From Trypanosoma brucei gambiense DAL972 (lineage: Eukaryota > Euglenozoa > Kinetoplastea > Trypanosomatida > Trypanosomatidae), in NCBI RefSeq assembly GCF_000210295.1, contig NC_026742.1:1240001-1304000 (forward strand): a DNA stretch of 64,000 nucleotides, read 5' to 3'. Both the position numbers and the translations under genes were made by a program. The notes beneath the pieces were generated by a model that was not told the DNA's origin, made no database searches, and worked only from the letters and a program-made list of their open reading frames with translations. The number at the start of each line of letters is the position of its first letter. The first letter of the stretch is position 1. Shown in pieces: positions 25,497-64,000 of this stretch.

Positions 25497-26567
25497 CTAC
25501 TTGCCACTCTCCGACAACCCGTATGTGACCAACGCCTCGCCCGCCTTAACGATATCCCCTGGTTTAACCGCTACTGACGCAGTTTTTGGAATGTCCAAAA
25601 CCAGCACGACGGAGGAACCCCAGTAAAAGGTAGAGAGGAGGTCCCCTTTTTTTGATGTGGCCGCCCTGCTATAACACCTGTGTACAGCGTATTCCGGGGG
25701 AGCTAAAAAATTTGTTTTGATGCGTTGATCCAAATGCAGTACGATACGCCCAGTTAGTGTACCGCCCACAAGGGCCAACCCCATGTTCCCACTGGCACTG
25801 TGCTCGTCAGTCCAACTTCCAAGGAGAACCACCCGCTCGTTTAATGGAAGGACAGAGGGAATCCAGTGATATCCCGCCGGTGTGTGCGGTAGTAAAGCAC
25901 CGGGTATATACACGACTTCCTTACAAGTAAACAAACACGGCGTTACCACATGATGATAATCTTGGGTTCGCAGATGTAAAGCAACAGCAATCCGCCGATT
26001 CCCCTCTGCCACGGTTCCCAGCGGGCTATGGAAAAGCCGTCTTACGCTATATGTTACTCCCTTAACCTGCAGCAACTGATCGTCTACCACATCCTCCTGG
26101 ACTGAGAGCACAACACCATCGGAAGGCATAACAACAGGTGACGTGGCAACTCGTCGCTCGCCATCTTCCCACCTACGAACGAAGAATTCTTGCAGTGTTT
26201 TATATTCCCGTTCTTTTCCCCGCGGCGCATCCATACCGTACCACCAAATGATTGCCGCAATAACTGCACGATGGAAAGAAGACGGCAAACATTCATTCTC
26301 ACTTATCCTTCCGCAGATGTGCGAAATATAGTTGAAGGGGAAAAGCATTAGCATCTCCAACATTCCAACAGAACACAAGCGAGTTCCCCCCTCGGGGTGA
26401 CGTGTTGCCTCCCATGCGGCAAGTTGGTACCGCCCACCGACGTAAACTGCGCCACCAATGATCGCACCACCAAAGAGGTAGTGATACAACCAGCGCCGCA
26501 TCGGGTTTGTGAAGGGTCTCGTTGTGTCATTCTTGTAGAACCGCAGTTGTCGTGTGAGCGAAGCCAT
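25497..26567 (-). CDS. PSD: phosphatidylserine decarboxylase proenzyme, mitochondrial
   Basis: A 356-residue protein with an ATG at 26565-26567. It converts phosphatidylserine to phosphatidylethanolamine, normally in the inner mitochondrial membrane. A basic N-terminus (1-28) precedes a membrane segment at about 30-50. The decarboxylase domain runs from about 75 (LFPFNYISHICGR) to the end, including VMPSDGVVLSV, VKGVTYSVRRL, HLRTQDYHHVVTP and LALVGGTLTGRI. The self-cleavage motif, LGST in many members, reads W316-G317-S318-S319. Cleavage after Gly317 would turn Ser318 into the pyruvoyl cofactor and leave a 39-residue alpha chain. GSS variants of this motif are known in active enzymes, so activity is expected. 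Confidence 0.95.
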   Translation of the reverse strand: MASLTRQLRFYKNDTTRPFTNPMRRWLYHYLFGGAIIGGAVYVGGRYQLAAWEATRHPEGGTRLCSVGMLEMLMLFPFNYISHICGRISENECLPSSFHRAVIAAIIWWYGMDAPRGKEREYKTLQEFFVRRWEDGERRVATSPVVMPSDGVVLSVQEDVVDDQLLQVKGVTYSVRRLFHSPLGTVAEGNRRIAVALHLRTQDYHHVVTPCLFTCKEVVYIPGALLPHTPAGYHWIPSVLPLNERVVLLGSWTDEHSASGNMGLALVGGTLTGRIVLHLDQRIKTNFLAPPEYAVHRCYSRAATSKKGDLLSTFYWGSSVVLVLDIPKTASVAVKPGDIVKAGEALVTYGLSESGK

Positions 26568-27483: not shown

Positions 27484-30400
27484 TTACTCACCGTCACGAG
27501 CGAGCAGCCGCTTGACAACGTAGCTAGTGATTGGCCAGAGTCGCTGCTGGTCTGCCTCACAAAGACTTGAAAAGCCTCGTATTGTCCCCGCGCAATATGA
27601 TGAACCGCACAGGCAAACAAAAGGGCTGTTCATTACCCACTCTGTAGTACAATAGTTGAATGTAACCATTTCCCCTTTCGAAATTTCCCTCAGTGTCACA
27701 AACCGAAGTCTGGCCTTCTGTTCATTTACCTCAACTTGCACATTCGGGTCACAGTGGTGAGCGATGCACTCCGCACCCTCACCAAAGAGAAGGTGCCTAC
27801 TCTCACCCACACAAATGGTGTACATTGTGGGAAACGGGACAACAAATCCAGACACATCAAAAAGGACGACCCCCTTCTTGATGAATGTGCTTGCATAGGC
27901 CGTCTGGCCCATGTCTCCGTTCTGACGGATTTCAATTAGGGGTGATGTTGACTTAACAGTCCAGCCATCGCGCATGGCCTGCGCCCGCACGGGAGGTTCA
28001 CACAAATAAAGGTTTTGTTGCTTAGTGTCCTCTTCCATATGACAGAATCCGAGGCAATGCTGAGAGTACGCTCGAGGAAATAGTGGTTTCATATCATATA
28101 CGAAGTAATTCATATTAACCGTTAATAGTTCACCCGCTTCAATGCTGCGCAGCGCTAGGAAGCGGCCTTCCACCAGCACGGTGTTCCCTTCCTCCTTATG
28201 TTGAATGATGTACCCATTTTCACCAACTGCAACCTGTACTGGTTGAATGTCAATGTTCGTGCACTCCAATAGCACCGTTTTGCGCGCGACAGGGCTCACC
28301 GCGTATAACATTCTTGACTGATTGACATCCAGGACGGGTGGTAGTCTTACAGACGCAGTTAAGCCGGCCAGTCGACGCATTGCAGGCGTAATGTACCTTT
28401 GAAGCATGGACCGCTGCGCGCTTGAAAGGAATTTGAACCCACGAATATTGTGCAAGCAGCTGGAACTATTACACTTACATTGGAACGGGCTGTGCAGCTC
28501 CCATTCTGTCGTCACGAAGTTTGCCGTTACGACCTCCCCGACGGCGATGTCTCTTATGGTTTCAAACTCTATCGCCTCATTTAAAGCATCCACGTGTATA
28601 CAAGTGTTTGGATCGCAACTGTGGGACACGAACTGCGCACCGCCAGAGGGAAGGAGGTGTCTGCGTTCCCCCAGTTGCAACGTGAGAGGCGTTGGGAATG
28701 GCAAAGAACGTCCCTTTGTGGCGAGCAAGCGAGTGCCGGCCGCAACGCGAGTTTTGGCAATAACCTCCAAGCCGGCAGTGCAGCTGCGGAGTCCAATCAG
28801 CTGAGAGTCAGAGCGACTTGTGAAACCATCCCGTATTGCAGCAGCGCGCACGTCGGGCTGCGCGAAAACGATTAGTGCCTCCTTATCTTGCTCATCCAAC
28901 CATTTGAAACCTCGAACCTTGTGCGGCTGAGCAAAGCGGCAACACTTGCACTCGATCTCTTCTGGAAGCGAGTAGCTCAGGCAATTAAGGTTAACGTTTA
29001 GTTCATCACCGGCAGAAACAGTACGTAGTAGTACGACCCTCTTCTCAATGAGCGCCGCGGTTGGAGAGCAGTGGTGCTTGAGGCGAACTCCATCAATGTA
29101 AACGAAGTTGTCTAAAACTTCCACTGCTGAGTATTCGATGACGACTGTCCCTGCCACCATTTCGGTTGCCACATGTACCGTCCCCTCGTCGCATACCATA
29201 AGCCTTTTGGAAGCAATCTGTATCCAGGCACCTTTTGGGTTACTTTGAGTGTCCGCCACAAGGGACTTGATTGCTGTGGATGTCACGTTCCACAGCTTCT
29301 GACGCGCGTCATTGCCAAGGTGTTTAAACCCCCCTATCCATCCGTAACATTTTTGCGATCCGCAGACACACATGAAAGGGTACTGCATATCCCATTCCGT
29401 CGTGAGGTAGTTAAATGATATGACCTCACCTTTCCGAATATCTCGCAATGCAATGCACTCGATTGTCCTCGCAGTGTTGTCTGTAAGAACGCGTGTGTTT
29501 GGGTCGCAGCTGTGCGCAAGACACTGCACTCCGCCACCAAAAAGAAGATGCCGCCTGTTGCTTAGAAGAATGGTATGCATAGTGGGAAAGGGTAAGGTAA
29601 GGCCATTCACGCGAAAGAATCGGGTTCCCTTTTTAATGTCAGACTTTGCGAATGTCGACTGCCCCATTTGCACATCCGCCTTCACTTCCACAAGTGGGGA
29701 AGAACTTTTAACGAGGAAACCATCCAAAACAGCGGCCTCTCGAACATGTGGGCTCGCACAAATCAGCTCAGCATTCTTCATCTCGTCAGTGAGGCCTTTG
29801 AAGCCGCTCACTTCTCCAACGCAGTGTTCTCCTTTGCAGTTGCACTTAAATGGCGTAGTAGTGTAGCAAAGGTGGTTGATGTTGATTGTTACAGCTTCAC
29901 CACGCAGCGAAGCTCGGCGAAGAACAACACTTCGCCCCAGCAAAACAGCGTTGGCAAAGCACGAGTGCTTGACGCGTATATCATCCAGTGCAACCTCATC
30001 ACCAATTACCTGAACGTCTGTGACGTTGAAGAGCTTAACCCCAGACGTCGTGTCACACATTAACCGAAGCTCCCCCGATGTCTCGTGAATAGAGATAAGC
30101 GAGTCATCAAGGGATGCCAACACACCACGGCGTTGGCGCGAAAACATAGACTTCACTCCCCTTGCTGCGTGCGGCCACAAACGTAGTTGGGCCCTTGCGT
30201 CAAGATACCGAAAACCTCTGATAAGGCCATAGCAGTTAGCAGTACCACAGATGCACCTGAAGGAGGATGCTAACTCCCATTCAGTAGTGAGGTAGTCGTA
30301 AGTTAACATCTCGTCCAGTTTAATATCACGCAGCGACAGGCAGTATCCGCTCTTTGTGGACCTGTCCATAACAACACGCAGGTTAGGTTCACAACTATGT

Positions 30401-31833
30401 GCGATGCAGCGTGCCTGATCCGTGAGAAAAAGATGCTCGTCATCTCCAACAAAAATTGTGTGTTTGGTTGCGAAGGGCAGTACCACGCCTCGCAGATCAA
30501 ACACCTGTGTACCCTTGGGGATGAAGTCGCCGGCATAAGTTATTTCACCCATTGTTGGGTGCCTCCGTGTCACTGCCAGAGAATTACTGGAGCTCCAGGG
30601 ACAGCCATTCTGCAGCGCCTCCAGAAACACGGGCTGTTGTGTGAAAGGCAAGAGCTGCTTCTTTTCCTCATCACTGAGCCCACGAAACCCTCGAACGGTA
30701 TTTGAGCATTTCGGGGAACCACATTTGCATTCGAAAGGCGCAGGAAGCTCATATTGAAGTGTGGAGAGGTTGAGAGAGAGTTGGTCCCCAGGTTGAAGCA
30801 TCCGTAGCGACACAAGCCTGCCATCAAGAAGAACTGTATTGGCATCACAGCTGTGCGCAATGGACAAGCTGTCAATGACGACTCGGTGCGGGCGTATATC
30901 AAATCTGTCTACCTGCAACAGTACCGTGCCCGGTGGGACAAACTGCTGGGTGGCGATCTTACCATCAGAGGTCAAAGTAAGCACCGTTGACTTCTGCAGC
31001 CCAGCGAGTGATGCAGTTGGGGGAACCACCGCACTGTGTCTCTCCTTGATGGCGGCACACACACTCGGCAATAGTTGCGCTTGCTGCTCTGATCCAAGGT
31101 GGCGAAATCCACGGATAATACCGTAGCATGAAGTAGTTTTGCAGGCGCAGGAGAATGGATGCGCGATATCCCACTCGGTGCACAGGAAATTGCGTGTGAG
31201 TTGTTCTTCTTTTTCAATAGCTCGCGTAGCAACAGCGGATATGGTTGTTCCACTAATTTCAAGTTGAACGTTTGGTTGGCAAGAATGCCGAACGAATTCC
31301 ACACAACAAGAGGGTCGCAAGTACTTCTTACCGGGTAGTTCAATTGTACCTTGTGCAGGGAACGGCAGAAGAAGCGCTGTACTAGTGAATACGATGCTTC
31401 CTGCTTCGTGACTGCAAGTTGCTAGGGTTGCAAAGCCAGAGTCTGGCTTCCGTACGATTTCCACACTCTTTTGGCAGCAAGTGGCGATGAACCCGTCCGC
31501 AAGTGCCTGTTGGCGTACCTTCTCATCTGCGTAGGGAAATAAACGTTGTTGCTCGTCTTCTCTAGCGTTTTTGAAAGTAGAAACAGCGGAGCCCTGAGGA
31601 AGCTTTGCGCCGTCATATATCACCAAACAAGGGTTGACCACCACAAACTCATCTTTATTTATCTCCTGCGTGGCGATAAGGAAGTTATTAATGATGGTTG
31701 CGTTAAATTCTTCGCCTAGTACTATGCGGCGTTCGTCATCCAGGACAAGTTCGCCGTTCCCAAATGTATAGTTTGTGGGAATAGGGCATATCACCTCACC
31801 GATCTTGAAGCAGAAATTGGCTTTCATTGCCAT
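27484..31833 (-). CDS. giant protein of alternating tandem SET-like modules
   Basis: A 1449-residue protein with an ATG at 31831-31833. Type-A modules carry xHSCxPN at 183, 479, 774, 1071 and 1359 (the last HHCDPN). Each is followed by a GE-rich strand, TTEW or CTEW, a post-SET CxCx4C (C229/231/236, 527/529/534, 822/824/829, 1119/1121/1126, 1407/1409/1414) and an I(R/G)GF signature. Type-B modules, with HSCxAN-type motifs at 327 and 623, HHC at 920 and a degenerate copy at about 1211, alternate with them. The A-to-A period is about 295 residues. The N-terminal 75 residues look like a truncated B module. SET proteins are lysine methyltransferases using S-adenosylmethionine. The SET-type Tyr is kept in A3 (YDY, 512-514), A5 (FNY, 807-809) and A9 (FNY) but lost in A1 and A7. 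Function unknown; some modules may be structural. Confidence 0.88.
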   Translation of the reverse strand: MAMKANFCFKIGEVICPIPTNYTFGNGELVLDDERRIVLGEEFNATIINNFLIATQEINKDEFVVVNPCLVIYDGAKLPQGSAVSTFKNAREDEQQRLFPYADEKVRQQALADGFIATCCQKSVEIVRKPDSGFATLATCSHEAGSIVFTSTALLLPFPAQGTIELPGKKYLRPSCCVEFVRHSCQPNVQLEISGTTISAVATRAIEKEEQLTRNFLCTEWDIAHPFSCACKTTSCYGIIRGFRHLGSEQQAQLLPSVCAAIKERHSAVVPPTASLAGLQKSTVLTLTSDGKIATQQFVPPGTVLLQVDRFDIRPHRVVIDSLSIAHSCDANTVLLDGRLVSLRMLQPGDQLSLNLSTLQYELPAPFECKCGSPKCSNTVRGFRGLSDEEKKQLLPFTQQPVFLEALQNGCPWSSSNSLAVTRRHPTMGEITYAGDFIPKGTQVFDLRGVVLPFATKHTIFVGDDEHLFLTDQARCIAHSCEPNLRVVMDRSTKSGYCLSLRDIKLDEMLTYDYLTTEWELASSFRCICGTANCYGLIRGFRYLDARAQLRLWPHAARGVKSMFSRQRRGVLASLDDSLISIHETSGELRLMCDTTSGVKLFNVTDVQVIGDEVALDDIRVKHSCFANAVLLGRSVVLRRASLRGEAVTININHLCYTTTPFKCNCKGEHCVGEVSGFKGLTDEMKNAELICASPHVREAAVLDGFLVKSSSPLVEVKADVQMGQSTFAKSDIKKGTRFFRVNGLTLPFPTMHTILLSNRRHLLFGGGVQCLAHSCDPNTRVLTDNTARTIECIALRDIRKGEVISFNYLTTEWDMQYPFMCVCGSQKCYGWIGGFKHLGNDARQKLWNVTSTAIKSLVADTQSNPKGAWIQIASKRLMVCDEGTVHVATEMVAGTVVIEYSAVEVLDNFVYIDGVRLKHHCSPTAALIEKRVVLLRTVSAGDELNVNLNCLSYSLPEEIECKCCRFAQPHKVRGFKWLDEQDKEALIVFAQPDVRAAAIRDGFTSRSDSQLIGLRSCTAGLEVIAKTRVAAGTRLLATKGRSLPFPTPLTLQLGERRHLLPSGGAQFVSHSCDPNTCIHVDALNEAIEFETIRDIAVGEVVTANFVTTEWELHSPFQCKCNSSSCLHNIRGFKFLSSAQRSMLQRYITPAMRRLAGLTASVRLPPVLDVNQSRMLYAVSPVARKTVLLECTNIDIQPVQVAVGENGYIIQHKEEGNTVLVEGRFLALRSIEAGELLTVNMNYFVYDMKPLFPRAYSQHCLGFCHMEEDTKQQNLYLCEPPVRAQAMRDGWTVKSTSPLIEIRQNGDMGQTAYASTFIKKGVVLFDVSGFVVPFPTMYTICVGESRHLLFGEGAECIAHHCDPNVQVEVNEQKARLRFVTLREISKGEMVTFNYCTTEWVMNSPFVCLCGSSYCAGTIRGFSSLCEADQQRLWPITSYVVKRLLARDGE

Positions 31834-43633: not shown

Positions 43634-44125
43634 TTATTCCTCCAAATCCTTCAAGTCCGCTGGTGCATCCTCCTCCTCATCATCCGAATCGTCATCCATG
43701 GCTCCCATGTCCATACCTCCCATGTTCATCATGTTGGAGAGGTCTCCATAGTCGCCAAATCCGGCGGGCACCTCATCCGCCTCGTCTTCATCCTTCCACA
43801 AATTCCAGTCAACAGAGAGCCAATTCTTTGTGCTGCTCGTTGGTTGGTCCACCAGCTTGTTCCAGTACCCTTCATCCTTTTTCGCCGCGCATACCTGAAT
43901 GGACACGCCTAGCACCTTGAAGCTGGACTTCTCCGGCACAATTTCCTTCAGAAGGGTTATTTCATCCTTCAACTCGTGTGGCTCGCTGGAGCGCTGCGTG
44001 ACGCCCTGACCGCTGATTTTGATCGTCTTGTCGGTGAAGGTGATGTTAACATCCTTCGCTGACGCCACCTGGAGGGTGATGTACAACTTATCATTGCGCT
44101 CTGCCCACTTGGTTGGAATGTGCAT
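43634..44125 (-). CDS. p23-like co-chaperone (CS domain)
   Basis: A 163-residue protein with an ATG at 44123-44125, only 9-10 bases after a CTTCCAG splice acceptor, which fixes the start. The CS domain spans residues 1-105: HIPTKWAERNDKLYITLQV (2-20), VNITFTDKTIKISGQG and VSIQVCAAKKDEGYWNKL. The hallmark Trp residues of p23 in WNKLV and WLSVDWNLWKDEDE are present. The rest is an acidic tail (EDEADE ... MDMGAMDDDSDDEEEDA). p23 binds Hsp90 in its ATP-bound state, slows ATP hydrolysis and stabilises clients. Trypanosomes are known to have two p23 paralogues; this is one of them. Confidence 0.93.
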   Translation of the reverse strand: MHIPTKWAERNDKLYITLQVASAKDVNITFTDKTIKISGQGVTQRSSEPHELKDEITLLKEIVPEKSSFKVLGVSIQVCAAKKDEGYWNKLVDQPTSSTKNWLSVDWNLWKDEDEADEVPAGFGDYGDLSNMMNMGGMDMGAMDDDSDDEEEDAPADLKDLEE

Positions 44126-44996
44126 TTCGTTCCACTGGAAGGAGTAGAAAATGAGTAAGGGTTGTGTAAAATGTAACCTTATTACAATTGGTTAAAAAAC
44201 ACAAAAACACACATACGTACGCACAGTGCCAAAAAAGTGAAACATACGTTCGGCGTGACATGAAGGCATTGTGCGCGTATGCGGAGGAGAAAGCATAGAA
44301 GTTAGAGAATAGAAAGGGGAGAAGTCATAGCGGTTGAGTTAAAACGAAATGTATCAACAGATGCACATGTGCAGAATCATATGTTAATGTTTAAGCCGAC
44401 GTGTCTATATGAATAAATGTTTATTCATATGACGTTACTGTTACACAGATGAACAGTGCTTATTCGTCAAGTCACCAACAAGTGAAGGAATTAAAAGAGA
44501 AGTGGGAAAGGGACACCACCCGGGGCGGTTATTCTCCTCAACCGCCTTATTGAGAAAAACATATTCTCCTCGTTCGGTCACTTGCGTCTTCTTTCTCTCT
44601 CTCTTTCTTTCTCTCCCTCCTGTTTTCTCATCATTTCTTCCTCCATCTTGCCCCCTTTTCACTTCTGAATGCAACAAAAACCGTCAATTCCCTCCCTCAC
44701 CTTCGCACAATTAATTAGTCACAGATGTATAAACTGTTACGAACAGAAGGGGAGAGGTGATGATAAGGAGGATAAGTGCAAGAAATGGAAAGGGAGGGAA
44801 AAAGTCATGGTAGCGCATCCAACTGCGCCGACAAATGCACGCGTCCACTCCCGTATTCAAACCTCCTTCATGCTGTGTCTTTTCACAACTGTGCTTTGAA
44901 AAAGTAAAAAAAAAAAGCTGTGCACGCTCCCAAAGCTTCATTTATCTTTTTCTTTCTTTCTGTTGCGGCTAACGTTGGTCCATATGAGCATCACAT
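44126..44996. other. intergenic region
   Basis: No gene seen. A plus-strand CT-rich block (about 44577-44660) and AT-rich sequence lie between the SmF 3' end and the p23 5' end. Confidence 0.6.
44135..44160 (-). promoter_or_regulatory. spliced-leader acceptor of p23
   Basis: A short C/T tract on the transcribed strand (complement of 44137-44155) ends with CTTCCAG, whose AG is at 44135-44136. The resulting 5' UTR is very short. Confidence 0.55.
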
Positions 44997-45224
44997 CTAT
45001 TCCTTTGGTACTTCCCGAATGTACAACACATTATTGTTACGCAGCAGCATGTCTCCAAGTTCTGTCTCCTGTTTTGCCTTTTCCACTGCATCACGCAGTT
45101 GCAAATTCATGTACGGGTCACAACTGACAAGTGTACCAACATATACGGGGCCCCATTTACTCTTCACATGGACTGTGTTACCCACCAAACTTGCGAGAAA
45201 CGCCGCCGGTACATTTGCATCCAT
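44997..45224 (-). CDS. SmF: SmF core snRNP protein
   Basis: A 75-residue protein with an ATG at 45222-45224. The Sm fold is complete: Sm1 includes [35 protein letters not shown] (residues 9-43; G, N and the DPYMNL core present), and Sm2 is [14 protein letters not shown]. The YMN loop and the RNN motif in Sm2 are RNA-contacting positions. SmF (PAFLASLVG...W) is part of the heptameric ring on spliceosomal U1, U2, U4 and U5 snRNAs, needed for trans-splicing in trypanosomes. The length (about 75) is normal for SmF. The upstream pyrimidine tract is one of the clearest in the window. Confidence 0.92.
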
Positions 45225-45335
45225 TACTTTCTTATTTAATTATTAAATTTGCACCTTCTTACTAATTTCTTTTTGTCTGTCTGTTTGTCCGTATGGTTTG
45301 ATTTCTTTTTCCCCTTCCCTCCGTAGGCACACCGG

Positions 45336-45400
45336 CTGAAAATTACAACGATAATAAAGTGGAGTAAAAAAAAAAAGAAAGAAAGTAAAGTCAGAAATTG
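45336..45400 (-). promoter_or_regulatory. spliced-leader acceptor of SmF
   Basis: On the transcribed strand, CTTTACTTTC-type sequence and a T-rich run (complement of about 45365-45393) lead into ATTTTCAG, with its AG at 45336-45337. This gives a 5' UTR of about 111 bases. Confidence 0.6.
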
Positions 45401-48194
45401 GCCGCAATAATAATAATAACGAACAACAACAACAGCAACAACAAAAAAAATAATTAAACACAAAAACAACATATAAGCATGGAAATTTTGGGACAGATGT
45501 AAAGAAAAGATATTTAAAAAATTAAATTAAAAAGAATAGCTCCACAAGGGAAGAATGCGTATCAGAATAAAAGGTACACAATACCGATTCTCCTAATGGA
45601 CGAAACCACATCAAAAACATTCCTCCCTCTCTCTCTTTCTCTCACATTTTATCCCAACTAACACATAACATAACAATACGTAAAATATTATACGACATTA
45701 CGTAGTTGTGACACCTTTTCATGTTGTTGCGATGCTCGAAAAACTCTTATTATTTTTTTAAAACATTATGCCATGATTTTTCCTTTCCTTTCCTATCCTA
45801 TCCTATTTATTTAATTATTTTTAAGTTGTTGCTTATCATAAGGTGATATTATTCCCTTTCAGGCGCATTCGACTCCTTTAGAAAAAAAAAATGAAAAAGA
45901 AAGAATGTGAGTTCAGCAGCACAGGACGAAAGTAAGAGCACGTAGATAATTGAATTTATTTTTTTTAAAAAAAATAATTGAGAAACTCAACGGTGAGATA
46001 TTTTTTAACAAAAACATTTCAGTTGGAAATAAATTCGAAAGAGTTGTTCGTTCATTTTCTTTATTTTTTTTTCTTTAGAATGACCTTTTTCGTGTTCCCC
46101 ATTTTTAAATTCCTTCCTTCCACTGTTTTTCTTTTTTCCTTTTTCACTTATCTCTCTAATTTTGATCTTCTTTAGGTTTACAACAAGCGGAAAGGAATTC
46201 ACATGGGGAAAACACTCCCCCCCCCCAATACACCACACACACACACAAAAAAAAATGTAAATGTAAATATCACGAGTTGAAAGCGGTTCCGCAATGAAGA
46301 TTGTAAGAGGTGTAATTCCAATAAAACAGAACGAACCAAAAGGAAGTTTGAACGGTGTCCATACGGTGTTATTAATGTTGCTTTTATAGAATTTGAAAGT
46401 TAAATAAATAAATAAAAGACGGAAGAGAAGTCGAAAGAGTTTTCTTTCCTTTTTTTTTTTGTAAAAAAAAGGAAAAAGAAGAAAAAGAACCACACTGGGG
46501 AGGTGAGCGACGGTGTTTTACTTTACTGTACCCCTTCCTGCTATTTATTCCCTTCATTGTTCCTCTCATCACAGTTTGTAATAACAATAACAATAACAAT
46601 ACAAGTAAGCATGATAATGATAAGTGAATCAATATCTCTTCTCAAATAATATTTGTGTACAAATAAAATTGATGAAAGCAAAAAGAAAAAAAAGTAGGGG
46701 AAAAAAGAGGAAGAAAGCACATATACAAGAGCCACCAGGTAGTAAAGCTTCAGTGCATTCATTTTGTTTTTTCTTCTTTTTTCTTTTCTTAAAAAAAAAA
46801 ACGCCGGAAAAAAAATGTTGTTGAGGTGACTTCCACATTTTTCATCGTTTTGTTCCCCCCACCCCCCGTAATAGATAAAAAGAAAACACACACACACACA
46901 CACACGCTTTTCCCCGTCTGTTATATTTATTTATATAACTCCATTTTAGCACTCGTTTATATATTCCAATATCTTCTTTTTTTTTTTTCTCGTTCTCTCT
47001 TCACTCCATATTTTGGTCCTCACACCGCCCCTCACCTTCTTCGTAGCAAAACTAAAAACAAAAAAGAAAAACAAAAAAAACAAAATTTGGTTCGAAAATG
47101 AAAACTTAATTTAATTTAATTTAATTTAATTTACAAAAACAAACAAACAATAAAGAGATAAACCCTTTTGGGCAGCATTATCGATGAGAATAATACTAAT
47201 AATAGTAATAAGTTTTCTCATCAATATATGTAATAGCAGCGGAATATGATATAATGGTACAAAGCGAGTGCTGTATCATTTCAAAAAGTAAATATATATA
47301 TATATATATTTTTATAATGAAAAACAAAAACCGAAGAAAAATTAATGGCAACGTGTGACCTCTTAACCACTTTTCTTCATTTCACTCAAAACTTTCACTC
47401 ATTTCTTCCCCCCTCCTCCAATACATCCACACACAAGTGAAAATTTAAAAAAAAAGAAAAAAAGAGGAAATATATATACATATACATATGCATATACATA
47501 TAACGGATCAAATAAAGCAGCCAAACAGCACCAAAGAAAAGTAAAAAAGAAAAAAAAGAATGTTTTATTTCATTATTTCCTGCTGCCGTATCATCCACCT
47601 CCTCTTATTTTTCTTTTTTACAATTTTCGTACCTCTTACATGAGAGGTTGTTACACCGAAAGTATAAACAAAAAAAAAAAAGGGGGTTTCTCTTTTGTGT
47701 GAAAATATAAATACGGAACGTCAAAAATAAATAATTCGATTGAAGCAAAGTGTTTGAAGGAGAAAAAAAAACGAAAAGTAGAAAAAGCAGCATTCATCCA
47801 ATAATCCAAAAAGCGTTTTTGTATAAAGTCAGAAGAGAACAGAAACTGGGAAAATAACTGTTTGTTTTTTTTCCTTCCTTCTCCTTTTCAATTATATTCT
47901 ATTAAAATGTTGTTATTGTCACAGTTCCCTTTTTTTTTTTAGAAAAAAATTTCCATCAGTACAAATGCAAAATGACAACGGCAACATCACGAACAGACAC
48001 CCAAAGGAGGAAATTTGTGATTGGTTAAAAATGCGATGAAAAATTTTTGAAAAATTCTCCCACTCTGTTTTCTTTACTTTCTTCTTCTCGTCACGCCTTA
48101 AAAAAAAAAAAAGAACTATTGGTGTTTGCTCTTTTCTAATTATTATTATTATTATTATTTTGGTTTATATTCCCCACTACTTCTTTATATTCAT

Positions 48195-48294
48195 NNNNNN
48201 NNNNNNNNNNNNNNNNNNNNNNNNNNNNNNNNNNNNNNNNNNNNNNNNNNNNNNNNNNNNNNNNNNNNNNNNNNNNNNNNNNNNNNNNNNNNNN
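48195..48294. other. 100-base assembly gap (N)
   Basis: One hundred N bases mark unresolved sequence; a fixed-length placeholder is likely, so the true size is unknown. It lies in homopolymer-rich AT sequence. Confidence 0.98.
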
Positions 48295-51219
48295 TTTTCC
48301 TTCTTTTTTTCCCCCTTTTTTTTGTTTCCACCAGCTTGTGTAAGTTCCAGTTCCTTCATGCAATATTTTTCCCAGACATAATATACATATCTCTTTCTTT
48401 TGTCATACATATATATATATATACAAATAAATAAATAAATATATATATATATATACAAATAAATAAAAATATATATATATATATATGTAAATATGTGCTT
48501 GAGCATTTGGATACCGTGTGCAGTGGACAAAACAGCGCCAATGTTACAACTAACGAAAAGTTGGAACGCATTGAGGGAAGGAAAAAAAATTTTTTTTTTT
48601 TTTAAAAAGGAAGAAACCGCAATAAATAAATAGATGAATGGAGATTGTTTTTCCTTTTTCTCCTGCTTTAAAAATCATTCACTTGAAAATTTAAATGCGT
48701 GCTCGTGTGCGCTGAGAAGCAAAAAAAAACAAAAAAAAGAAAAGAAAAGAAAAGAAACAGATTAATTTTTTTGTTTTTGAAAAAAAAAATGAGAACTAGT
48801 GGAAGAAGAGGAGAATAAAAAGGGACGAGGGAGTATAAATTAAACAAAAATAAATTGTTGATTCAAGCTGAAAGACAAAAAAAAAAAGGGAAAAGAGGAC
48901 CGAGCAATACGCGTGTAGAATTTATACACAGCATACATAAATATAAAACCAGTACAAAAATAAACATAATGACAAAAATAACTGTGGCAATAAAAGCAAC
49001 CACCATCATATTCAGTTGTGACTTCAGCAAAATTATTACGTTCTTCTCTTTTTTTTTTCGACTTTTTTTTTGTTTTTCCTCCATTTTATTCGTTGCTTTG
49101 TTTTACATTTCTTTGTTACATTCTTTTTCTTTTCCCTCTCTAACGGTTACCGTGTCCGTTACCTTTAAAAAGAGGAAAAGAAATCAAAAAAAAAAAGTTG
49201 AAAGAAACCGCAAACGAAGTCAAGACATTTATAACCAAAGAAAAAAAAAAAATGAATCTTTTTTTTCTTAAAAAAAAAAGATAGGTACCACTAGCACTGG
49301 AAGTATAGAATAAAAAATATATAAATACGTAGCACTATTCATTTTTCCTTTTTTTTATTTATTCTCACAATAATCAAAAATAAACAATAATTTTCTTCTC
49401 ACTTTGTAAAGAGAAGAAAGAAGAAAAAAAAAACAAAATCGCCCCACAGTTCATCCATAATGGAATAGATGGTAATAAAAGGGGTTGCAATAAAAAGAAA
49501 AGAAAAAGAAAAAGAAAAGAAAAGAAGAAAACAAAACAAAACAAAAAAGCAAATTTAATATAACTTCCCCATGATTCCTTTTTTTTCCCCCCTTTTCTTT
49601 ATTTCTTTATTTGATTTTGTTTTGCCACACGCAATTCCTCATTTTACTTTCCTTCTCCCATTTCCTTCTTTTCACCATTTGTATTCATTAATGAAAGTTT
49701 AATGAATACAAACAGCGTAAAAAAAATAAATAAATAAATAAGAAACAAGAGATTTAAAAAAAAACAAAGAAGGGGAAAGGAAAGGAAAAGAAATGCAACA
49801 AAATAAATAAATTCGTAACAAAGAAATTAAAAAAAAAAGGAAACCACGTACTAAAGGAGACGTCACTAACACCACTGTCAATAAATAAGCACAAAGATAT
49901 AAAAGTATATAGTGAATATATTTATATATATATATATATAGGTATATACAAATATACATATGACCAAAAAGGAGGGGGGAAGAAAAGAAAACAGCAGAAA
50001 AATAATATAAAAGAAAAAAAAATTTTAATGCGTGCACGCGCGAAAACAAAACAGACGAAATGGAAAAAAGAAAAAGGAGCCAAGAGTTCTCTGGGAATAA
50101 AGTTCCAAAATCTTCAGAAGCGAAAAAAAAAGAAGCAGGAATGACGGAAGGAGACCGCCTCAATGCTTCATCTCTACACACTAATAAACGGTGACTTCTT
50201 TTTTTTTAAAAAAATTACTCTTGTGTATTCTTTTCAAATAAGTCTTTGTGTAGGATAAATAAATACGAGCGGAATATATGTTTATTTTGCGTATAATTAT
50301 GCTGCTGAATTTACTCTACCCCCACTTCGCTTCACTCGCTATTTTTCCAGTCTGTATTTTATTTCATAGTACCTTTGCCCCTCCTTTTTTTTTTTAAAAA
50401 AAGGGTCATCTGCTTTTAGCTTTCTCGCGTTTTTTTAAAATTTTATTTCCTCTCAGTTTCTAATTTTTTCCCCTCCTTTCTTCTTCTTCTTCTATACATT
50501 TGTTTTTAATCCTTCCCTATTTGTGGCATTACTGCACATTTTCCTTTATATATTTTTTCCCCTTTAAACTAATCCTGTTTGGTTGTTGTTGTTTTTCTTT
50601 TTTTTTTTACCACCTGGATAGATCATCGTTCGATGGTGAGCCCATTACTTCGCACTATCAAATAAAAATGCCACTAAAAAACCAGCAAGGAAAAAAAAAT
50701 TAACAACAGGGGCACGCCACAGTATTTTAAAATATATTCACATAATTTTCCTTCATTTTTTCCTTTCCCGTTTCTTTTTTTTTTTTAAAAATTCTCTCAA
50801 ACTGCTCGTCTCAGTTCGTCAATTTTTTTTTTCGCTCTTCTTTCCATTTAACTCTTTTTTTTTTTTACTTTTCCTCCTCCCTTTTTTCTTTTTTTATTTC
50901 TAACATGCCACACCTCTCAAACGGCTATGATTATCATTGTGATTCTCTCCTTTTTACTATACCATCTTCATAAATGGAACAAAACAAAACAAAAAAAGTA
51001 AAAATAGTGAAGTAACGAAAAAAAAAGTAAAAAAAAATGAACTGACTTTCACATCATCATATGTACTTGAAGCATGAACCATTTTGCCTTTTTTTTTTTT
51101 GCATTGTCTCTTTCTCTTTCTCTTTCTCTTTGCCAAGGGCCTTCATGTGAAGAAATGTTTTTTTTCCTTCTTCTTCTTCTTCTTTCTTTCTTTTTTTTTT
51201 TACTTTTTTTTTTTCCACA

Positions 51220-51597
51220 TCACTTGGCTACCCACTCATTAGGGTCCTCACCATGAGAGAATCGACAGTTGCGGCGGTTGCAACGACTTCTTAAATGATG
51301 TCTGCAAAGGGAAGACGGAGACACCTTCGAATTCCCTGCTGCCGGTTCCACTGAAGCCTCCTTCGTGTAACCATCACCACTCGTCCCAAGGAGTAGAACA
51401 GTAGTCGACAGATTATTGTTAGGCATCATAAGCGGCCGAACCACCGGCGGGACGGGAACCGCAGCCCACATGTAAACGCATTGAGGAACGACTGGAGATG
51501 TTTGTGGTGGGGTTGGGGGAAGCGGGTTATACATCATGGGTGCCGCAAGAAAGAACGGTTGTGTCGGCTGAGGTTCTGCTGCACTGGGGAAGATCAT
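51220..51597 (-). CDS. small CCCH zinc-finger protein
   Basis: The likely protein has 125 residues from the ATG at 51595-51597. The open frame extends to 51828, but its first part is translated (TA)n microsatellite, so an upstream start is unlikely. The N-terminal half is Pro-rich (NPLPPTPPQTSPVVPQ, 24-39). One CCCH finger lies at the C-terminus: Cys98-x7-Cys106-x4-Cys111-x3-His115 (LCRHHLRSRCNRRNCRFSHG), followed by ten residues. In size and layout it resembles the small trypanosome ZFP proteins, RNA-binding regulators of differentiation. The finger type binds AU-rich or other mRNA elements. Downstream lies about 6 kb without a gene, so the mRNA could have an unusually long 3' UTR. Confidence 0.75.
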   Translation of the reverse strand: MIFPSAAEPQPTQPFFLAAPMMYNPLPPTPPQTSPVVPQCVYMWAAVPVPPVVRPLMMPNNNLSTTVLLLGTSGDGYTKEASVEPAAGNSKVSPSSLCRHHLRSRCNRRNCRFSHGEDPNEWVAK

Positions 51598-51748
51598 GTT
51601 ACTGGGTTTCTGTTTCGCTTTGCTTTGCTTTACTTGTTGTTGATGTTTATGATGCTGTCGGGAGAACTCTCCTTCTTGCCCGTTTGCTCCTTTTGGAAGT
51701 TGCTCTTGATGAAGCGTCTTTTGTAAGTAAACGCCCCAACGAAAGATA

Positions 51749-51782
<34 letters not shown>

Positions 51783-52347
51783 AGTTGATCTCTTTTTTAT
51801 CCCCTCGAATCAGGAATGGCTCGTCCACGTACTACAGAAATGTCCTTCAGTCAAATGTAGTATTGCAGCAATGTCGCGCTCTTTCTTTTCCCCTTGCGGT
51901 TGAACTTCAACGCCGTCGAAAATGAAAGAAATAAGGTAGTGGAATGACATTCCGTAATATAAGAGTACCGAGCATAACACAGATACATATACATAAAGAA
52001 AGTGGATAAAGGAAGCATGGGAATCTCGAGACATTGCATGAAACAACAAACAACCCTTCTCCCCATCACACACACACACACACACAAACACACACACCCC
52101 AACAAACAAATATACAAATGAGGGAAAATAAGAGCATACACCAACTACCCACTCTCTCCATTTTGGGGGGACTTTTGACTACAGTTTCCCCCCCCCCCCA
52201 AAAAAAAGATAAATGGGAGTACCGAAGTGTTTTAGCAGCCTCTCGCGACAAGCCTCCAAAGGGGACCAAAAAAGTTATAGCACTTTGCGGGTGTCGGGTG
52301 GCAGGGAGAACAATGCTTAAAAAAAAAAAAACAGCCAATACGATTGG
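51598..52347. other. intergenic region with TA and CA microsatellites
   Basis: A (TA)n run lies at 51753-51780, within the CCCH gene's 5' flank; a CA run at 52068-52085; and a C run followed by an A run at 52189-52207. No gene seen. A plausible acceptor for the CCCH gene lies near 51908-51940. Confidence 0.6.
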
Positions 52348-63348: not shown

Positions 63349-64000
63349 TTAATCGCTGTCATCGAACCTTGTGGTATTACGGTTATTGTCGAAAGAAGGA
63401 GATGGCCGACCAAAGCCACGGCCTCCACGATCCCCAAAGCCACGGCCTCCACGGTCCCCAAAGCCACGGCCTCCACGGTCCCCAAAGCCACGGCCTCCAC
63501 GATCCCCAAAGCCACGGCCTCCACGGTCCCCAAAGCCACGGCCTCCACGATCCCCAAAGCCACGGCCTCCACGATCCCCAAAACCGCGGCCTCCACGGTC
63601 CCCAAAACCACGGCCTCCACGATCACCAAAACCACGGCCTCCACGATCACCAAAACCGCGGCCTCCACGATCCCCAAAACCACGGCCTCCACGGTCCCCA
63701 AAGCCGCGGCCTCCACGATCACCGAAATCACGGCCTCGGCCGCGACCCCGTCCGTTTCCATTTTCATTTCGAATAAACTTTCGAACAGGCTCGTCTTCCC
63801 CCTCCTCGTCATCACCAATGGATCGCTTACCATTGGCATTCTGCGGCACCTCTTCTCCATCACTGTCAGACTCTGGCATAGGTTTCTTGGGAGCAACCTT
63901 TGGTGACCTCTTAGCTGGTTTACGCACGGGCTCATCATCATCACTGTCAGACTCTGGCATAGGTTTCTTGGGAGCAACCTTTGGTGATGCTTTCACTGGT
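63349..64000 (-). CDS. RGG-repeat, acidic-basic repeat protein, partial C-terminus
   Basis: A frame open across the right edge gives the last 217 codons up to the TAA at 63349-63351; the N-terminus lies outside. The visible start has two copies of a SPKVAPKKPMPESDSD motif with Ser/Asp acidic blocks of the type phosphorylated by CK2 (ESDSDDDE, ESDSDGEE). Then comes an acidic stretch (DDEEGEDE), basic RGRGRGR and 13 copies of the octapeptide FGDRGGRG. It ends with RPSPSFDNNRNTTRFDDSD. Arg-Gly-Gly repeats bind RNA and are often arginine-methylated. The mix of acid-serine blocks and RGG repeats resembles trypanosome nucleolar phosphoproteins such as NOPP44/46. Identity cannot be fixed without the N-terminus. 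Confidence 0.85.
   Translation of the reverse strand, partial: PVKASPKVAPKKPMPESDSDDDEPVRKPAKRSPKVAPKKPMPESDSDGEEVPQNANGKRSIGDDEEGEDEPVRKFIRNENGNGRGRGRGRDFGDRGGRGFGDRGGRGFGDRGGRGFGDRGGRGFGDRGGRGFGDRGGRGFGDRGGRGFGDRGGRGFGDRGGRGFGDRGGRGFGDRGGRGFGDRGGRGFGDRGGRGFGRPSPSFDNNRNTTRFDDSD
63406..63731 (-). repeat. 24-bp coding tandem repeat (FGDRGGRG)
   Basis: Thirteen copies of a 24-bp unit encode FGDRGGRG. Copies differ by synonymous changes only, at a few wobble positions (for example CGATC versus CGGTC). The regularity leaves the antisense strand open in more than one frame. Confidence 0.95.

What the first reader, a model, noticed from the sequence alone, without database searches (positions are those of the whole stretch)
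27484..31833. A 1449-residue protein built from about five SET dimers (ten alternating SET-like modules)
The xHSCxPN motifs at residues 183, 479, 774, 1071 and 1359 recur at spacings of 288-297 residues, each with a post-SET CxCx4C. Between them lie a second type of module with HSCxAN or HHC motifs. Catalytic-type Tyr is kept in only some modules. A chain of SET modules covering an entire protein is not something I know from any family; usual SET proteins hold one. It might methylate several sites at once, act as a scaffold with one or two active modules, or bind several partners.
Basis: partly seen in the sequence, partly recalled or inferred. Interest (0 to 1): 0.85.

Follow-up and report, generated by a model that had tools for sequence, protein, structure and literature searches.

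The report
Ten-module SET protein of kinetoplastids
A trypanosome protein is made of five back-to-back pairs of SET modules, one dead-looking and one enzyme-like in each pair, and its nearest relative of known structure is a bacterial enzyme that methylates the amino acid methionine, not a histone enzyme.

Summary
The ORF (minus strand, window 27484-31833, Trypanosoma brucei) encodes 1449 aa: five tandem B-A pairs. Each A module (HSCxPN, TTEW, CxCx4C) passes the Pfam SET cut-off alone (5 of 5). No B module does (0 of 5), but profile comparison, a PDB profile search and a B2 model place B in the SET fold. Twenty-four of 29 related proteins score as BABABABABA. A and B are separate lineages.

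New here: the nearest solved relative is BurB, a methionine S-methyltransferase, ahead of histone enzymes by sequence and, for A, by structure. The nearest single-module proteins are 150-201-aa 'TTEW' SETs. In 16 of 47 prokaryotic loci such a gene directly precedes an adenylation-carrier synthetase gene (Pls/PosA-like in the three checked); others lie with ATP-grasp ligases or decarboxylases; 20 show none of these. The SET tyrosine is kept in A2, A3 and A5 in 25 of 25 orthologues and never in B.

Best reading: an array of half-dead pseudo-dimers methylating an amino-acid-type substrate. Activity, substrate and cellular role are untested. New variant of a known kind.

The parts
27484..31833 (-). 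ORF, 1449 aa poly-SET protein (five B-A pairs)
31474..31833 (-). B0, residues 1-120: most degenerate B module, no HSC, no Zn cysteines
   Evidence: B profile 34.9 bits at 10-119; alignment; no Pfam hit
30991..31473 (-). A1, residues 121-281: SET; Tyr124-equivalent is F in T. brucei (Y in 24 of 25); position 72 is S, G or T in all 25
30589..30990 (-). B1, residues 282-415: pseudo-SET with complete Zn cysteines
30106..30588 (-). A2, residues 416-576: SET, Tyr kept 25 of 25
29704..30105 (-). B2, residues 577-710: pseudo-SET; modelled alone as a SET fold
29224..29703 (-). A3, residues 711-870: SET, Tyr kept 25 of 25, best Pfam score of the A modules
28810..29223 (-). B3, residues 871-1008: pseudo-SET, Zn quartet incomplete
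28315..28809 (-). A4, residues 1009-1173: SET; F instead of Tyr in T. brucei (Y in 24 of 25)
27949..28314 (-). B4, residues 1174-1295: pseudo-SET without HSC or CxC
27487..27948 (-). A5, residues 1296-1449: SET, Tyr kept 25 of 25; 48 of 154 columns invariant in 25 proteins

Best explanation
It is a kinetoplastid-conserved methyltransferase, one gene in T. brucei, built as a five-fold array of SET pseudo-dimers. Each pair joins a catalytically dead SET module (B) to a catalytic-type SET module (A) of the BurB-like 'TTEW' subfamily. Shown: the ten SET-related modules, the alternation, conservation, absence of the catalytic-type Tyr from the B modules, and closest kinship to TTEW SETs and BurB. 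Inferred: A2, A3 and A5 bind SAM and transfer methyl groups; B holds or gates its A partner, as one subunit of a dimer would; A1 and A4 are weakened in T. brucei; the substrate is an amino acid or amino-acid-type group (free, or on a peptide or protein) rather than a chromatin mark.
Against: No activity, SAM binding or substrate is known. BurB is only 26-29% identical in the structural alignments and a long branch in the tree (1.86). BurB holds Met through main-chain atoms, so sequence cannot test Met binding; its SAM-contact residues Arg133 and His138 are not among the three commonest residues at those positions in any A module. BurB Y124F keeps over 60% activity, so Tyr conservation neither proves nor excludes S-methylation. 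BurB leads ASH1L by only 1.5 in Z, with a larger rmsd; for B2 they are tied. The packing of pairs is poorly fixed (pTM 0.57). 20 of 47 loci show none of the three neighbour types, and bacterial context need not carry over to a eukaryote. In T. brucei A2 drifts like A1 and A4.
Confidence: 0.5

Rival explanations
1. A protein-lysine methyltransferase array: several A modules methylate several lysines of one protein or filament.
For: A modules are SET with a complete zinc post-SET like histone enzymes; MLL1, ASH1L, NSD1 and SETD2 come next by sequence or fold. Most T. brucei SET proteins are reported as cytoplasmic, and SET proteins there are presumed lysine methyltransferases (PMC8559703 and PMC5976210, passages seen).
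Against: BurB beats all listed histone enzymes by sequence and leads by structure for A; contexts of part of the prokaryotic kin point to amino-acid chemistry.
Confidence: 0.3
2. A non-catalytic scaffold or SAM/SAH sensor: the array binds partners or cofactor and hardly methylates.
For: All five B modules and, in T. brucei, A1 and A4 lack the Tyr; B0, B3 and B4 lack the zinc quartet in 25 of 25.
Against: A2, A3 and A5 keep Tyr and zinc cysteines in 25 of 25; in BurB even Y124F keeps most activity.
Confidence: 0.17
3. The SET reading is wrong, or only the A modules are SET.
For: B modules score nothing for SET in Pfam.
Against: hhalign, PDB profile search and the B2 model all give SET.
Confidence: 0.03

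Closest known systems
BurB (Met S-methyltransferase, PDB 9l4t/9l4v)
   Same: Best sequence and structure match of A modules; C-terminal CxCx4C; also best by sequence and tied best by structure for B
   Different: One module of 172 aa, tetramer in solution; 'STED' instead of 'TTEW'; known substrate
150-201-aa TTEW SET proteins (P0033-P0051 and the prokaryotic loci L013-L059)
   Same: FNY-L-TTEWDM...C.CG..C.G.IRGF.HL signature; P0033-P0051 are 30-42% identical to A3 over 56-96% of it
   Different: One TTEW module and no B partner seen; named 'SET domain-containing protein-lysine N-methyltransferase' in 8 of 9 plasmid hits; I found no tested function
Histone SET enzymes (MLL, ASH1L, NSD, SETD2)
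   Same: SET fold with post-SET zinc site
   Different: Single SET with other domains (recalled); weaker match than BurB
P0060 and P0061 (one B-A pair) and P0062 (Perkinsela, A only)
   Same: A module beside or at the edge of the kinetoplastid A clade; a weak B hit (26.9 and 20.7 bits) before A in P0060 and P0061
   Different: No array; source organisms of P0060 and P0061 unnamed, completeness not proven
TTLL12 (SET-like plus TTL domain; PMC3520985, abstract start in a listing only)
   Same: A SET-like domain joined to a ligase-type domain, recalling the bacterial ATP-grasp+SET ORFs
   Different: Not compared by sequence here

Membership tests
SET domain superfamily (PF00856) | A modules score as SET alone | tested here: met
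   5 of 5 over the curated cut-off
SET domain superfamily (PF00856) | B modules score as SET alone in Pfam | tested here: not met
   0 of 5
SET domain superfamily (PF00856) | B modules share the SET fold and descent | tested here: met
   hhalign 99.3; PDB profile; B2 model matched to SET structures. Only B2 was modelled alone
SET domain superfamily (PF00856) | Catalytic-type Tyr and zinc cysteines, A modules | tested here: met
   Zinc quartet 25 of 25 in each A; Tyr 25/25 in A2, A3, A5 and 24/25 in A1, A4, T. brucei itself having F in A1 and A4
SET domain superfamily (PF00856) | Catalytic-type Tyr, B modules | tested here: not met
   0 of 125 cells; depends on the alignment
BurB-like Met S-methyltransferases | Closest kin among solved SET structures | tested here: met
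BurB-like Met S-methyltransferases | Residues contacting SAM in BurB (His72, His93, Arg133, His138) | tested here: inconclusive
   His93 kept in all A (25/25 each); position 72 mostly Tyr in A2, A3, A5; Arg133 and His138 not among the three commonest in any A module, nor in the 17 TTEW rows counted
BurB-like Met S-methyltransferases | Methylates methionine to S-methylmethionine | not testable with these tools
   needs an assay
Protein-lysine (histone) methyltransferases | Lysine channel and lysine methylation | not testable with these tools
Kinetoplastid poly-SET orthologue group | Alternating B-A array | tested here: met
   24 of 29 proteins called BABABABABA, 2 with an extra B call (P0016, P0022), 3 shorter (P0027, P0029, P0030)

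The most novel reading that the evidence does not exclude
A eukaryotic array enzyme of the BurB/TTEW class: five SET pseudo-dimers in one chain, each with a dead module steering a live one, making or using a methylated amino acid (possibly S-methylmethionine, which the S-methyltransferase-family gene on contig 1 might then use) or methylating amino-acid polymers, as the Pls-linked bacterial kin suggest. It would be a non-chromatin SET enzyme with a tandem pseudo-dimer architecture.
Probability: 0.25. Interest if true: 0.8.

Novelty: new variant of a known kind. Interest (0 to 1): 0.6.

Why it matters
SET domains are mostly read as histone or protein-lysine methylators, and trypanosome SET genes are listed as such. 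This gene is a ten-module array, shared by Leishmania and Trypanosoma and beginning the same way in the partial Bodo protein, whose closest characterised kin acts on a free amino acid. It makes a clear test possible: does a trypanosome SET protein work on a metabolite? It also gives a natural series of dead and live-type SET modules in one chain. The bacterial side (SET genes next to Pls/PosA-like or ATP-grasp genes) suggests a wide group of SET enzymes in amino-acid chemistry.

Tried and rejected
Self-BLAST of the whole protein listed only the full self-match, so the repeats were shown by alignment and profiles instead. Pfam on single B modules gave only sub-threshold chance hits to other families, or none. 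I considered that this was the SET-J3C protein of Leishmania (LtaP35.2400): rejected, since that paper describes one N-terminal SET-like region at residues 70-227 and a zinc finger (passages). SET7 and SET29 of L. donovani are also different (one SET each; passages). The T. brucei gene identifier and localisation were not found in the passages seen. Viral-contig scan: 3 pattern stretches, none a relative. NCBIfam gave no family at E<=0.001 for P0001, P0034, P0037, P0061 or P0062. Phrases for tandem or multiple SET domains: 0 papers and 8 papers, none on such an array by title and abstract start; one search likewise (6 listed). S-methylmethionine with Trypanosoma: 6 papers, titles and abstract starts seen, none about trypanosome metabolism. 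SET with ATP-grasp: 2 papers; SET with poly-lysine and nonribosomal peptide synthetase: 0. Origin by transfer from bacteria: not resolved; the rows labelled 'bac' plus BurB form a 94/76 group beside A clades. Single-pair proteins as ancestral states: suggestive only. In the B2 structure list one row (rank 30, a Toxoplasma pre-conoid ring chain) is not named as a SET protein and I did not look into it.

Rows dropped: P0002 (identical to P0001) and P0027-P0031 were left out of the 25-protein alignment; the structure alignment used 21 rows; P0002 and P0031 were left out of the 29-protein count. Seventeen TTEW rows were used for residue counts and 19 rows labelled 'bac' in the tree; most come from unnamed sources and are called prokaryotic by likeness to the 47 genome loci (P0043 and P0070 are named so), and P0063 may be eukaryotic. 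The A and B profiles were trained on modules that include those of T. brucei (B0 excepted), so their recovery there is not independent. Five of nine plasmid hits were opened.
Full report
The ORF. Window 27484-31833 holds an uninterrupted 1449-codon ORF on the minus strand. The genome is Trypanosoma brucei or very near it: an identical protein is named 'SET domain containing protein [Trypanosoma brucei equiperdum]'. It is the only such gene found there; the three other matches of the whole protein are weak single-SET stretches. PF00856 gives 32 matches in the genome, five of them inside this gene. Ten other large minus-strand ORFs of the window were scanned: six have Pfam hits to unrelated families (one below its cut-off, one a TPR match with no stretch passing on its own) and four have none.

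The modules. By alignment I cut the protein into B0-A1-B1-A2-B2-A3-B3-A4-B4-A5. Five of five A modules pass the SET cut-off alone and no B module does. Profiles trained on modules of 25 proteins, T. brucei among them but B0 left out, find all ten in T. brucei, B0 included. Of 29 proteins scored, 24 are BABABABABA, two have one extra B call (P0016, P0022), P0030 has four pairs, and P0027 and P0029 are short. The partial Bodo saltans protein P0056 begins B-A-B-A. No profile hit was found in 500 shuffles.

Which A modules look active. In BurB numbering, position 124 is Tyr in A2, A3 and A5 in 25 of 25, and in A1 and A4 in 24 of 25, the exception in both being T. brucei with Phe. The zinc quartet is complete in A1-A5 (25 of 25 each), B1 (25) and B2 (24), and in 0 of 25 of B0, B3 and B4. 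Position 72 (His in BurB) is Tyr or His in 24 of 25 A2, 25 of 25 A3, 24 of 25 A5, 14 of 25 A4 and 0 of 25 A1. Mean identity to four leishmaniine-side proteins (one of unnamed source) is lower in T. brucei than in T. cruzi for A1 (42 v 54%), A2 (45 v 59) and A4 (43 v 52), less so for A3 (55 v 61) and A5 (62 v 65). T. vivax is low too: A1 45, A2 51, A3 55, A4 46, A5 58. So A3 and A5 are the best candidates for activity, A2 next.

Tree. With 85 rows, B modules (30 rows) and A modules with TTEW SETs and BurB (55 rows) are split by one branch of 100/100 support. A1, A2, A4, A5 and B0, B2, B3, B4 each group by position across Trypanosoma and Leishmania, so the array is older than their split; A3 is not resolved as a group and B1 is split in two. 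P0028, of unnamed source, has near-identical repeats, a sign of recent copying. BurB and P0060_B are long branches, so their places are unsure.

Contexts of prokaryotic kin. One scan with a TTEW-type pattern found 47 loci in genome contigs, so only proteins with that motif were sampled. Neighbours were sought with four query proteins at E 1e-5. In 16 of 47 loci the next ORF downstream on the same strand is an adenylation-carrier protein; three of the 16 were scanned with NCBIfam and match the Pls/PosA family model at E 1.9e-93 to 6.3e-110, below its strict cut-off. Ten of the 16 are Planctomycetota, so they are not 16 independent cases. Seven of 47 loci hold an ORF with both ATP-grasp and SET, an eighth (L052) an ATP-grasp-like ORF on the other strand; Pfam confirmed the three ATP-grasp+SET ORFs scanned. 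Two of 47 have an ornithine/diaminopimelate-type decarboxylase beside the SET. L038 has only a weak adenylation hit 3.3 kb away, and 20 of 47 loci have no hit to any of the four queries. On plasmids (five of nine hits opened), Sphingomonas has SET beside a diaminopimelate decarboxylase, Tabrizicola has SET, GHMP kinase, a PLP enzyme, a transporter and an alanine racemase in a row, and Eleftheria has SET within a PKS, dioxygenase, aminotransferase, aldehyde dehydrogenase cluster that recalls the bur pathway (that likeness is partly from recall). In Streptomyces and Deinococcus no such gene lies directly beside the SET.

Reading. The pairs most simply arose by duplication of a TTEW-type SET into B and A, then tandem copying. 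P0060 and P0061 (one A with a weak B hit before it) and the single-A Perkinsela protein fit that order, but their completeness is not proven. My best mechanism is an array of pseudo-dimers in which A2, A3 and A5 transfer methyl groups and B modules support them. The substrate class (amino-acid type) is inferred from kin, not shown. T. brucei has one S-methyl_trans gene (PF02574), weakly homocysteine-methyltransferase-like (below NCBIfam's cut-off), a possible user of S-methylmethionine; this is only a lead.

Prior work. T. brucei is reported to have 29 SET proteins, eight with some nuclear signal (PMC8559703, passages), or 33 (PMC5976210, passages). I did not learn which number this gene bears. 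I found no paper on a multi-SET array in searches (listings only, apart from the passages named); subscription papers and supplements were not searched.

Noticed in passing
L029, L032, L036, L037, L039-L045, L048, L051, L056, L057, L059: A TTEW SET gene sits directly upstream of an adenylation-carrier gene in 16 of 47 sampled loci, Pls/PosA-like in the three scanned; possibly an unstudied methylated poly- or oligo-amino-acid pathway.
   Followed up: partly
L019, L021, L022, L023, L025, L027, L035; protein P0031: ORFs that join a D-Ala-D-Ala-ligase-like ATP-grasp to a SET domain, most of them in loci with a second TTEW SET ORF; P0031 has three SET matches plus an ATP-grasp by precomputed Pfam.
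   Followed up: partly
L034 5794-7200: A 468-aa ORF joining a SET to a Rossmann-type SAM methyltransferase.
   Followed up: no
P0028: Poly-SET protein of unnamed source with near-identical B-A repeats, a sign of recent unit copying.
   Followed up: partly
window 44001-52000: AT-rich stretch, GC 0.35 and 0.315 against about 0.47-0.49 on either side, with AT-rich tandem repeats at 48405-48494.
   Followed up: no
window 63410-63737: 24-base tandem repeat, 13.7 copies, inside long ORFs on both strands.
   Followed up: no
window 25497-26567: Phosphatidylserine decarboxylase-type ORF next to the SET gene on the same strand.
   Followed up: no
P0062 and P0065: Perkinsela and a close unnamed relative have a single A-type SET interrupted by an insert of about 50 residues.
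   Followed up: no
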